6,672 nucleotides of DNA. Origin: Anaerolineae bacterium. Its GTDB lineage: Bacteria; Chloroflexota; Anaerolineae; 4572-78; J111. The notes under the pieces are model-generated. The model had not been told where the DNA came from. It made no database searches and saw only the letters and a program-made list of their open reading frames with translations. Both the position numbers and the translations under genes were made by a program. This document shows positions 2,227 to 6,604 of this stretch, piece after piece. Position 1 is the stretch's first letter; every line of letters starts with the position of its first letter. The stretch covers positions 1 through 6,672 of the forward strand of contig JAGRBY010000401.1 of assembly GCA_020433835.1 (NCBI GenBank), written 5' to 3'.

Positions 2227-3039
2227 ATGAGCAAAAATCAAAAAATATGGCTTTTGATAGGTGGATTGCTTGTTATTTGTGTTTGTGTACTCATAGGTGG
2301 ATCTGTAACCTTTTTTATGCTCCAAGGTCAAACGAAAAATACTATCCAACAAGTAACTAATGTTAATCCATTAGGAGATACGACTGCCCAAGATTGTACG
2401 TTGCGTCTGACACCTGCCAGAAGTAATCAAATTGGTGCAGTTTGGAGTTCTACTAAGAAACCCGTTCAAAATGGTTTTGAGACAGTTTTTGAATTTCAAT
2501 TGACTGAACTTGGCGGTGCTGTCAACAGGACTGATGAAACTACCGGTGGGGATGGGTTCACTTTTATAATCCAGAATGATACGCTGTCTTTTTTAGGTGA
2601 AAATGGTGCTGGCCTTGGATATCCACCTGTTGCAAATAGTCTTGCTATTGAATTTGATACCTGGCTTAACGATGGTATAGCTTTGGGGCCTAATCTTAAA
2701 GACCCTAATGGTAATCACATTAGTATACATACACGGGGATTAGAACCCAATGATGGACATGAAGATAGTTCTATTGGCGCTACGATTGACCTTCCGGATA
2801 TATCTGATGGCGAAATTCATACTGTGAAAATTGTCTATATACCCGGCACGATAGAGATTTTTATGGATAATCTGGCGACCCCTGTCTTGACGGTTCCAGT
2901 GGACTTAGCCACCAATCTCAACTTGGATAATGGTCAAGCGTGGGTTGGTTTTACTGCCTCGACAGGAGCGGCCTGGGAGAATCACGATATTTTAAATTGG
3001 ACTTTTAATGGAGCAAAGGTCGGGAATGATTGTCTATAA
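2227..3039 (+). CDS. Membrane-anchored L-type (legume-like) lectin domain protein
   Basis: A 270-residue protein expected to hold a carbohydrate-binding domain outside the cell. Seen: N-terminus MSKNQK, one Gly/Cys-rich membrane helix (about 8-31), a short linker, then an L-type lectin beta-sandwich (about 57-263). Hallmarks occur in the family's order: GDGFTF (108-113), whose Asp109 matches the sugar-binding Asp of legume lectins; the metal-site strand SLAIEFDTWLN with Glu142, Asp144, Trp146 and Asn148; Asp159 and His164 (DPNGNHISIH) completing the usual Mn/Ca site; DGEIHTVKIVY (194-204); and the last strands WVGFTASTGAAW...NWTF. Cys57 and Cys269 bracket the domain and may form a disulfide. 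The start is well supported by GGAGAGG at good spacing. The anchor resembles that of the preceding gene. Sugar specificity cannot be read from the sequence. Fold assignment is strong by motif; a sugar-binding role is inferred. Confidence 0.88.
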   Translation: MSKNQKIWLLIGGLLVICVCVLIGGSVTFFMLQGQTKNTIQQVTNVNPLGDTTAQDCTLRLTPARSNQIGAVWSSTKKPVQNGFETVFEFQLTELGGAVNRTDETTGGDGFTFIIQNDTLSFLGENGAGLGYPPVANSLAIEFDTWLNDGIALGPNLKDPNGNHISIHTRGLEPNDGHEDSSIGATIDLPDISDGEIHTVKIVYIPGTIEIFMDNLATPVLTVPVDLATNLNLDNGQAWVGFTASTGAAWENHDILNWTFNGAKVGNDCL

Positions 3040-3100
3040 CCTTGTGAAAGGTCTTGTCCACCATCTATACGGCGAGTTGAGCTTTGCTGGTTAGTATTAT

Positions 3101-3150
3101 GGAGAGGACAAAGCGTGGCCCAGCAAATCAACATGCGAATTACTATGTAG
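3101..3150 (+). pseudogene. Stranded 5' end: strong RBS plus 11-codon ORF
   Basis: GGAGAGGA (3101-3108) lies six bases before GTG at 3115, which opens MAQQINMRITM and stops at TAG 3148-3150. The last five residues, MRITM, are the same as the first five of the gene at 3329, and the 18 bases 3133-3150 match 3329-3346 at 16 positions. The simplest reading is that this was the original translation start of the downstream gene, cut off by the sequence that now lies between. A short leader peptide is the alternative. Confidence 0.5.
3133..3150 (+). repeat. 18-bp near-perfect direct repeat, copy 1 (copy 2 at 3329-3346)
   Basis: ATGCGAATTACTATGTAG here and ATGCGAATAACTATGTAT at 3329-3346 differ at only two positions. 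They flank 178 bp that contains the inverted-repeat element. The second copy supplies the start codon of the next gene. This could be a target duplication or a local duplication; 17-18 bp would be long for a normal transposon target duplication. Confidence 0.75.
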
Positions 3151-3181
3151 TGTTTAGCTTCTTTTGACATTTCGGGATGCC

Positions 3182-3284
3182 ATGTCATTTCGAAGCCGAA
3201 GGCGAGAAATCCCCTCGATATTTGATAATAAATGGGTGTTGGTGGGGATTTCTCGCTCACGCTTGCGTTCGCTCGAAATGACAT
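3182..3284. repeat. Long imperfect inverted repeat, likely dispersed palindromic element
   Basis: Two arms pair perfectly in two blocks. ATGTCATTTCGA (3182-3193) pairs with TCGAAATGACAT (3273-3284), and GCGAGAAATCCCC (3202-3214) pairs with GGGGATTTCTCGC (3244-3256). They are separated by an unequal internal loop (8 and 16 bases), and the apical spacer is 29 AT-rich bases. GGATG at 3175-3179 and CATCC at 3282-3286 suggest a slightly longer original arm. The GTCATTTCG...GAGAAATC core resembles short repeats I remember from many environmental genomes, including Chloroflexota and Bacteroidota; this is recollection, not a search. No transposase is encoded. Transcribed, it would fold into a stable hairpin just upstream of the next gene. 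Confidence 0.9.
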
Positions 3285-3328
3285 CCGTGTGTCTCAACTG
3301 CGTAAGTCATATTTAGATCAGAGAGTAG

Positions 3329-4078
3329 ATGCGAATAACTATGTATAAAATAATCAAACCTGTAAAACGGGGACTTATCCTATTTATGCTGATAATAGGA
3401 GCCGGTATCGGCATGACAACTTGGTCAGCCGTAGAAGCCGCACCCTTGCCACAGAGCGACGCGCCTTCAGCCCCAGAGGTTTTTGAAGGTGTTGAATTTC
3501 CCCACGGCGAAATCTCCTTTGCTGACAGAGTTGTCCGTTACAAATCCGGTGCGCAGGTAGAATCGCCATTTGATGATCCGGCTAACGCGCTTGGCCCGCC
3601 CGATTATGACTCCCGGGCCGACACCGGCTCTGTGGCGCTTGGTAATAGTGAGGCTACCTGTGAAAGTGAACTCGTCATGGAATTTGTCGATAATCTGCTG
3701 GTAGATATTCCTGACGAAGATCTATGGATATTTGAGATTGGCCCTTCCGTAGAAGCCACGGAGGTCTATATTAGCTCCGACGGCGAGGATTGGATTGCTT
3801 TGGGCCGGGTAGAAGGTTCAAAAAGGGGGATAGACATTTCCGGTGCCGCTACGCCTAATCAGCAGTTCAAATTTGTTAAATTGTGTGATTATCCTGATGG
3901 AAACACCTCCCGTGCTCCTTACGGCGGACCAGACATAGACGCAGTAGGCGCTATCGGCACGATCCCTGTTGAAACCGTAACGCCACCTGCACACACATCG
4001 ACACAAATTGCAGGTATTTCTATGGTATGGTGGGTATTTGTTGTTTCTTGGGTGTCGTTGTGTTGGGGATTGGGGTAG
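3329..4078 (+). CDS. Secreted surface protein with discoidin-like domain; C-terminal anchor frameshifted
   Basis: As it stands, a 249-residue exported protein. Seen: a signal peptide (basic MYKIIKPVKR, hydrophobic 16-35, likely cleavage near Ala37). Then one domain (about 60-210) with FADRVVRYKSG, ALGPPD (87-92), SVALG, MEFVDNLLVD, DLWIFEIGP (131-139), VYISSDGEDW (146-155), FKFVKLCD and DIDAVGAI (202-209). That order matches a beta-sandwich often found in cell-surface and OmpA-associated proteins and related in style to F5/8C-like binding domains; its ligand is unknown. Cys111 and Cys186 could pair. A Pro/Thr linker (212-226) leads to a hydrophobic but uncharged end. A better anchor, a Gly/Val-rich helix plus QRRT, lies in another frame up to 4110 (see 4021-4030). 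The ATG at 3329 has only AGAGAG before it, with 3341 as a second possible start. Both ends look damaged, so the gene may be decaying. Confidence 0.75.
   Translation: MRITMYKIIKPVKRGLILFMLIIGAGIGMTTWSAVEAAPLPQSDAPSAPEVFEGVEFPHGEISFADRVVRYKSGAQVESPFDDPANALGPPDYDSRADTGSVALGNSEATCESELVMEFVDNLLVDIPDEDLWIFEIGPSVEATEVYISSDGEDWIALGRVEGSKRGIDISGAATPNQQFKFVKLCDYPDGNTSRAPYGGPDIDAVGAIGTIPVETVTPPAHTSTQIAGISMVWWVFVVSWVSLCWGLG
4021..4030 (+). repeat. 5-bp tandem duplication (TATGG x2) that breaks the reading frame
   Basis: TATGG occurs twice in a row. Removing one copy joins ...AGISM directly to VGICCFLG and opens the frame through to TAG at 4108-4110. The restored protein would have 258 residues and a proper C-terminal membrane helix. 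The 5-bp gain is exactly the size needed for the observed shift. A one-base deletion or a sequencing/assembly error nearby would have the same effect. Confidence 0.65.
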
Positions 4079-4110
4079 TTATATTTGTTGTGTTACAACG
4101 CCGAACGTAG
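4031..4110 (+). pseudogene. Out-of-frame C-terminal membrane anchor of the 3329 gene
   Basis: Read from codons at 4033, 4036 and onward, this encodes GICCFLGVVVLG, then IGVVIFVV, then LQRRT and a stop. That is one hydrophobic helix of about 22 residues followed by two arginines, the standard form of a stop-transfer anchor. Its Cys-Cys and Gly/Val make-up recalls the N-terminal helices of the two anchored proteins upstream. In the current frame the last residues are instead a Trp/Val-rich tail with no positive charge, ending at 4078. Confidence 0.65.
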
Positions 4111-4159: not shown

Positions 4160-5251
4160 ATGCGTTACCCAAAGCTGCCACACCGAATGATTCAAGTGAT
4201 GTTGGGCATATTATTTTTGGCTAACTGTAGCTCACCTGTTACGAGGCCTGTTGCCACTCATATTACGGTCACGTCACCCCCTACATCGATTCCTTTGGCC
4301 TCTACAACCTATGAGGACAGTAACAACCATGCTGTGAAACCAACGAATACTATTTCACTCTCAGAAATCACGAATATCACAGATATACCTGGGGTAAGTA
4401 AATTTGTTTGGTCACCGGATGGAACACAATTGGCGGGGGCAGAGAAAGGTGTTGTATATGTATGGCAGTTTACCTTCACCCCTGATAGAAGCCAATCTAA
4501 ATTTCAAGATGTATATCAATTTATAGCTTCGACAGAGCGACGTATTGAAGGCTTAACTTGGTCTCCAGATAGCTCAATGCTCCTTGGCGGTAACAATGAT
4601 GGGATGTGGCTATGGAATACTAAAACGGGCGAAGAGATTCAAAAATTTGAATATGAATATGGACCAATAAGTTTAAGTTGGTCATCCGATGGGACAATGA
4701 TAGCTGGTGGTAGCGCTGATGGCAAAGTGCAGTTGTGGGATGCAAGGAACTGGGAACAGCCCATCGTAATCGCAGAAACTTCAGATAGAGTAAGGGAAGT
4801 AGCTTTATCGCCAGACGGCACAAAACTGGCTTTCACAGAAGGAGATGTTATACGGTTATGGGATATTATCGATAACCAAGAATTGAGTGTACTGGAAGGC
4901 CATAGAGAACTTGTCGGGCATGTTTCTTGGTCGCCTGACAGCACACAGTTAGCGACGACAAGCGATGATCAAACTATAAGGATTTGGGATTCATTGAGTG
5001 GAACGGAGCTTTATAGGTTACCCCATGATTCTCCAGCGTTTAGTATTGCTTGGTCCCCTAAAGATAACTTTTTAGCATCGGGAAGCAGAATGGGTACTTT
5101 GTATATTTGGGATACCACAAATGGGGAGATGCTTGTTTCAATAGAGGGGCATACAGATTCAGTCACAGATATAGCTTGGTTTCCGGATGGGACAATGGTC
5201 GTATCTGCCAGCTTATTTGAGGGCACTTTGCGAACTTGGATAATTAAATAG
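4160..5251 (+). CDS. WD40-repeat lipoprotein, complete seven-bladed propeller
   Basis: A 363-residue protein likely tethered by lipid to the outer face of the membrane and used as a protein-interaction platform. Seen: a signal peptide with a hydrophobic core (10-21) ending LFLANC, where Cys23 is the probable lipidation site; Asn at -1 is less usual than Gly/Ala/Ser. Cys23 is the only cysteine in the protein, which supports that role. A Ser/Thr/Pro linker (24-65) follows. Seven WD units end at VWQ (101-103), LWN (151-153), LWD (192-194), LWD (233-235), IWD (275-277), IWD (316-318) and TWI (359-361). Most carry WSPDG/S-type turns, and GH dipeptides occur at 247-248 and 330-331. The number fits one closed propeller with no other domain. 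The start is supported by AAGGA at 4148-4152, seven bases upstream. It begins 49 bp after the restored end of the preceding gene, so co-transcription is plausible. Confidence 0.88.
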   Translation: MRYPKLPHRMIQVMLGILFLANCSSPVTRPVATHITVTSPPTSIPLASTTYEDSNNHAVKPTNTISLSEITNITDIPGVSKFVWSPDGTQLAGAEKGVVYVWQFTFTPDRSQSKFQDVYQFIASTERRIEGLTWSPDSSMLLGGNNDGMWLWNTKTGEEIQKFEYEYGPISLSWSSDGTMIAGGSADGKVQLWDARNWEQPIVIAETSDRVREVALSPDGTKLAFTEGDVIRLWDIIDNQELSVLEGHRELVGHVSWSPDSTQLATTSDDQTIRIWDSLSGTELYRLPHDSPAFSIAWSPKDNFLASGSRMGTLYIWDTTNGEMLVSIEGHTDSVTDIAWFPDGTMVVSASLFEGTLRTWIIK

Positions 5252-6490: not shown

Positions 6491-6604
6491 TAACTTACCC
6501 AATTCTGTCGGGTAAATGGTAAATGGTAATTGGTAACTGGTAATTAGAGACTGGAGATTGAATAACCAATTACCAGTACCTATTTACCAATTACCTAACT
6601 TACC
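6491..6604. repeat. Heptamer-based palindromic element flanked by 9-bp direct repeats
   Basis: Five head-to-tail heptamers lie at 6511-6545 (GGTAAAT twice, GGTAATT, GGTAACT, GGTAATT). Their reverse complements follow at 6568-6595 (AATTACC, then shortened and lengthened variants, then AATTACC). ACTGGTAATT (6536-6545) pairs perfectly with AATTACCAGT (6568-6577), and further heptamers continue the stem with mismatches, giving a long imperfect hairpin. TAACTTACC occurs on both sides, at 6491-6499 and 6596-6604. The left side also holds a short stem (TTACCC 6495-6500, GGGTAA 6510-6515). It carries no coding capacity. It may act as a transcription barrier after the dockerin gene or be a small mobile palindrome. 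Confidence 0.85.

What the first reader, a model, noticed from the sequence alone, without database searches (positions are those of the whole stretch)
3101..3346. Gene start apparently split from its ribosome-binding site by an inserted element
Seen: the first 18 bases of the gene at 3329 recur at 3133-3150 with two differences. The upstream copy has a much better ribosome-binding site (GGAGAGGA before GTG 3115) but reaches a stop after MAQQINMRITM. The 178 bp between the copies holds a long inverted repeat. If one copy and the intervening DNA are removed, GTG 3115 reads straight into the signal peptide (...INMRITMYKIIK). Inferred: a palindromic element inserted with duplication of the target or of local sequence, leaving the gene with a weak start. 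A 16/18 match somewhere in a window this size is not in itself rare; its placement exactly at a start codon, in frame, behind a strong RBS is what makes it notable.
Basis: partly seen in the sequence, partly recalled or inferred. Interest (0 to 1): 0.7.

Follow-up and report, generated by a model that had tools for sequence, protein, structure and literature searches.

The report
REP palindrome beside repeated gene start
A common kind of short bacterial DNA palindrome sits in front of a gene, between the gene's present start and a faint upstream copy of that start; the copy may be a scar of a small duplication, but no relative without the palindrome could be examined to prove it.

Summary
The sequence facts are right. 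ATGCGAAT[T/A]ACTATGTA occurs at 3133-3149 and 3329-3345 (16 of 17 bases). The upstream copy follows a gene-like Shine-Dalgarno (SD) site and its frame stops after 11 codons. A strong palindrome lies between, exactly 3183-3283: an inverted pair of TGTCATTTCGA...GAGAAATC units. It is REP-like, nearest to the CGTC/TGTC repeats of Di Nocera 2013; its half-site is high-copy in three Desulfobacterota genomes. The copies lie 33 and 45 bases outside the palindrome, so they are not a target-site duplication flush with an element. Of 141 scored clusters of such repeats, 8 (window included) carry a flanking direct repeat this strong, little above intergenic background (11 of 495; p 0.04, or 0.08 without the window). 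The best orthologue, P0002, starts opposite ATG 3329 without MAQQIN. For a duplication scar: the SD before 3329 is at background level, that before 3115 gene-like, and contig L005 shows the same layout with an exact 38-base start duplication. Most likely an ordinary REP-like pair in a leader, with a start stub left by a local duplication (about 50%); chance is the main rival (about 30%).

The parts
3101..3108 (+). Gene-like Shine-Dalgarno site GGAGAGGA of the upstream stub
   Evidence: anti-SD pairing -6.4 kcal/mol
3115..3150 (+). Short frame GTG...TAG, (V/M)AQQINMRITM; proposed truncated start stub
3133..3149 (+). Upstream copy of the gene start (16 of 17 bases)
3183..3283 (.). REP-like palindromic pair, TGTCATTTCGA...TCGAAATGACA; inner arms 3202-3214 and 3244-3256
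3329..3345 (+). Downstream copy, the present gene start, weak SD (-3.3 kcal/mol)
   Evidence: start opposite that of P0002
3329..4078 (+). Gene behind the leader, 249 aa, no Pfam family, hydrophobic N-terminus

Best explanation
The inverted repeat 3183-3283 is an ordinary REP-like, TGTC-ended palindromic pair in the 5' leader of the 3329 gene. The gene is translated from ATG 3329 or a nearby in-frame ATG. The stub 3101-3150 is most likely the scar of a local duplication or non-homologous recombination that left a copy of the first ~17 bases of the gene behind the old ribosome-binding site and put palindrome-bearing leader DNA (3150-3328) before the present start. Shown: the repeat, the palindrome and its kind, the weak SD, the early stop of the stub. 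Inferred: that the stub is a duplicate, the order of events, and any effect on expression (lower translation would be expected from the weak SD).
For: 16 of 17 match that begins exactly at the start codon, about 1% by simulation for any such pair. SD gene-like at 3115, at background at 3329. L005: exact 38-base duplication of a gene start, both copies beginning at ATG, with a half-unit of the same kind of repeat between. L054: a 59-base, 78% duplication around a start-like ATG with a different palindrome between. Flanking direct repeats somewhat enriched at the repeats: 8 of 141 against 7 of 1344 random (p 2e-5) and 11 of 495 intergenic places.
Against: Against intergenic places the enrichment is marginal: p 0.04 at score 14, a threshold equal to the window's own score, 0.08 without the window, 0.12 and 0.18 at 16 and 18. 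Copies are 33 and 45 bases from the palindrome. P0002 lacks MAQQIN, and ATG 3133 alone is too far (24 bases) from the 3101 SD, so the stub is not an obvious old start of the orthologous kind. Gene-start repeats occur without this repeat too. The L005 half-unit is no stable hairpin (z 0.76). No allele without the insert was seen.
Confidence: 0.5

Rival explanations
1. Chance: an ordinary REP-like pair in an ordinary 289-base intergenic stretch; the 16 of 17 similarity and the SD at 3101 are coincidences picked out by reading many windows.
For: About 1% per window by simulation; 16 hits at 3060 candidate starts; 11 of 495 intergenic places have a flanking repeat as strong; the copies do not touch the palindrome; orthologues lack MAQQIN.
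Against: The match begins exactly at the start codon, in frame behind a gene-like SD, while the present start has a background-level SD.
Confidence: 0.3
2. Remnant of a tandem paralogue: the stub is the start of a former second gene copy of which the rest was deleted up to the palindrome.
For: Similarity that begins at ATG and not before it is what diverged paralogues would show.
Against: The gapped local alignment of the two start regions ends after 17 bases; no further gene similarity was seen between the copies (by eye).
Confidence: 0.1
3. A functional leader: the 11-codon frame and the hairpin act together as an attenuator or translational switch for the 3329 gene.
For: A short frame with a good SD followed by a stable hairpin.
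Against: The hairpin belongs to a dispersed repeat kind and not to this gene. No Rfam match; the one terminator-like site in 2950-3450 is at 3070-3089, not at the palindrome; 3284-3360 and 3090-3149 fold no better than shuffles.
Confidence: 0.05

Closest known systems
CGTC/TGTC-tagged REP repeats (Di Nocera 2013, PMC3733652; abstract, passages and section 15 seen)
   Same: TGTC end, AT as first stem bases, inverted pairs with a spacer, intergenic between same-direction genes, no flanking transposase
   Different: The window's units have interrupted stems and different loops; no CCA tail; copy number in its own genome unknown
GTAG REPs with RAYT transposases (PMC2817692, PMC3116915; search listing only)
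   Same: Short dispersed palindromes in inverted pairs
   Different: No GTAG end; in three copy-rich genomes none of seven Y1_Tnp loci is flanked by the repeat
MITEs with target-site duplication (recalled; PMC6382973 seen in listing only)
   Same: Small inverted-repeat element between two direct repeats
   Different: The direct repeats are 33 and 45 bases away from the inverted-repeat ends

Membership tests
CGTC/TGTC REP super-family | CGTC (often TGTC) at one end of the unit | tested here: met
   TGTCA at 3183 and TGACA ending at 3283; TGTC variant stated in PMC3733652
CGTC/TGTC REP super-family | 8-9 bp stem beginning with AT, loop of 4-5, CCA tail | tested here: inconclusive
   By eye: units begin ATTTC and end GAAAT, but stems are interrupted, loops differ and the tail is CCC; the fold pairs the two units with each other
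CGTC/TGTC REP super-family | many copies in the host genome | not testable with these tools
   No genome held for the window. The half-site pattern is in 13 of 198 genomes of the phylum of G002, 32, 22 and 88 times in G007, G044 and G080; reversed control 0
CGTC/TGTC REP super-family | not flanked by a transposase gene | tested here: met
   None of seven Y1_Tnp loci in three copy-rich genomes is flanked by the repeat; one of them, L134, has a single half-site about 1.5 kb off. Not testable in the window's genome
GTAG REP / RAYT | GTAG tetranucleotide at one end | tested here: not met
   The ends are TGTC
MITE | target-site duplication flush with the terminal inverted repeats | tested here: not met
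   GGGATGCCA before and TCCGTGTGT after the palindrome share none; the best flanking repeat is 33 and 45 bases off

The most novel reading that the evidence does not exclude
REP-like palindromes recurrently take part in replacing gene leaders: a recombination event bounded at the start codon copies the first tens of bases of a gene, leaves the old RBS-plus-start as a truncated stub, and gives the gene a new palindrome-bearing leader. The window, L005 and perhaps L054 would be independent examples of different ages.
Probability: 0.15. Interest if true: 0.55.

Novelty: new member of a known kind. Interest (0 to 1): 0.3.

Why it matters
REP-like palindromes are known in intergenic DNA and at gene ends (PMC3733652), but how TGTC/CGTC kinds spread is open. 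A case in which the old start is still visible beside the palindrome would record an arrival and its cost to translation. L005, with its exact 38-base duplication, is the better case to study. If the window's repeat is chance, this is an ordinary REP-bearing leader.

Tried and rejected
Rfam scan of the window: nothing at gathering score. tRNA: none. Blastn of 3040-3346 against phage and plasmid records: no match. Relatives of the 3329 protein in viral contigs: none; in genome contigs: two distant ones, no leader comparison possible. The 16-base core pattern gave 14 viral stretches, which were not checked for gene starts and were kept out of the element counts. A pattern of the window's right arm in viral contigs: none. 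Papers holding the 10-mer of the repeat: 21, 20 listed, none with a title about palindromic repeats (listing only); two further paper searches gave no paper on gene-start duplication by such repeats in their listings. Idea of a larger mobile unit with outer arms: rejected, flanks not complementary. Synteny through the lectin: no listed hit shares the contig lengths of P0002 or P0003, but 120 of 271 hits were listed. Relatives of the L005 start in phage records and viral contigs: none other.

Dropped rows: one search scored 90 of 96 copies and one search scored 141 of 150 clusters (short flanks dropped; repeated left flanks merged). L001, L002 and L017-L030 were left out. L088, a tandem-repeat locus, was left out of the controls but not of the element counts, which flatters the enrichment; the control kept it (8 of 972 at score 14). 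Several of the 8 flanking repeats are themselves other repeats or low-complexity runs (L035, L128, L080).

Full report
What is there. The window is a record for which no genome is held. Its 5336 protein is 72% identical to one from an Anaerolineaceae bin, so it is probably Anaerolineae (inference). Six same-strand genes: RDD membrane protein, PPC-domain protein, L-type lectin (2227-3039), the 3329 gene (249 aa, no Pfam family), a WD40 protein, and a protein without Pfam match. Between the lectin and the 3329 gene lie 289 bases.

The observation. ATGCGAATTACTATGTA (3133-3149) and ATGCGAATAACTATGTA (3329-3345) differ at one base; the 18th base differs too. GTG 3115 follows GGAGAGGA by six bases, runs in frame into ATG 3133 and stops at 3148-3150. 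A 16/18 direct pair within 400 bases occurred in 1 of 100 Markov simulations. Among 3060 candidate ORF starts there were 16 hits with a 16/18 copy within 300 bases upstream, the window's included; several lie in coding or tandem repeats, two are one place in L053, and two (L043, L048) are identical. Anti-SD pairing is -6.4 kcal/mol before GTG 3115, -3.3 before ATG 3329 (window mean -2.9), and -6.4 to -9.3 before four neighbouring genes. An in-gene ATG at 3413 has -6.5 and the database gene model P0001 starts there, which would cut off most of the hydrophobic N-terminus.

The palindrome. It is 3183-3283: TGTCATTTCGA at one end, its complement at the other, inner arms GCGAGAAATCCCC/GGGGATTTCTCGC. 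It folds far better than shuffles on both strands (z -6.4 and -6.2); the bases outside do not pair (7 of 33). The half-site pattern is in 14 viral-collection stretches, an ACCG sister pattern in 11, a CCGAG variant in 27. It is in 13 of 198 genomes of the phylum of G002, with 32, 22 and 88 matches in G007, G044 and G080 and no match of the reversed control. So it is a dispersed palindromic repeat. The nearest described kind is the CGTC super-family, whose tag is TGTC in many repeats (PMC3733652: abstract, passages and section 15 seen). That paper reports REPs mainly between same-direction or convergent genes, some at the NH2 ends of ORFs where translation may start further downstream, and no transposase linked to CGTC repeats. 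In three copy-rich genomes none of seven Y1_Tnp loci is flanked by the repeat; one has a single half-site about 1.5 kb off.

Does the repeat duplicate its target? With permuted flanks as control, 10 of 90 copies have a flanking direct repeat of score 14 or more against 0.6%. In 141 scored clusters 8 do, against 7 of 1344 random positions and 11 of 495 intergenic positions. The fair control is the intergenic one: Fisher p 0.04, 0.08 without the window, 0.12 at score 16 and 0.18 at 18. The window scores exactly 14 and is one of the 8; several others are low-complexity or other repeats. So flanking duplications are not a regular product of this repeat kind. One contig is striking: in L005 a half-unit (1947-1984) lies between two exact 38-base copies of a gene start (1909-1946, 2044-2081). 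Both begin at ATG, each has a strong SD (-11.6), and the left copy overlaps the stop codon of the gene before it. There the left copy touches the half-unit, which it does not in the window, and the half-unit alone is no stable hairpin (z 0.76). A five-base run, GGGGA, closes the L005 copies, and GGGGA also precedes the other half-unit of that contig, so a junction by microhomology between two leaders of one gene is an alternative to transposition (inference). In L054 a different palindrome lies inside a 59-base, 78% duplication around a start-like ATG. These make a duplication history for the window plausible and do not prove it.

Orthologues. Of 46 homologues listed, one of them the window's own, I aligned P0001 (own) and seven others with the window frame. 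P0002, which covers the whole query at 60%, begins MRNITHKMTQPKK opposite MRITMYKIIKPVK; P0003-P0005 are several residues shorter at the N-terminus. None of the seven carries a MAQQIN-like extension. These are gene-caller starts and their upstream DNA could not be read, so this is moderate evidence. The genome collection gave two distant relatives, the viral collection none.

Conclusion. The palindrome is a REP-like pair of a known kind; the start at 3329 matches the best orthologue's; the upstream stub is about as likely as not a duplication scar, with chance the main rival. Insertion with a target duplication flush with the element is not supported.

Noticed in passing
window 3994-4108: The conserved C-terminal membrane tail of the 3329 family (as in P0002, P0003) lies in another frame than the 249-aa ORF, which ends at 4078: a frameshift or sequencing error near the 3' end.
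   Followed up: partly
window 3413: The database gene model P0001 starts at ATG 3413 with a better SD than ATG 3329, which would drop most of the hydrophobic N-terminus.
   Followed up: partly
L005 1909-2081: Phage-like contig with an exact 38-base duplication of a gene start around a TGTCATTTCGA half-unit, each copy with its own strong SD.
   Followed up: partly
L054 about 4770-5050, minus strand: A 59-base, 78% duplication around a start-like ATG with a different palindrome between the copies.
   Followed up: partly
L006 5700-12800: Many repeat units with short tandem copies (about 15-20 bases) of the sequence next to them.
   Followed up: no
G007, G044, G080 (L071-L073, L080-L128): The repeat is high-copy and often in outward-facing pairs about 71 bases apart, the opposite arrangement to the window's pair.
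   Followed up: partly
window 6509-6592: GGTAAATGGTAATTGGTAACTGGTAATTAG followed by a near-complementary run: another intergenic inverted repeat.
   Followed up: no
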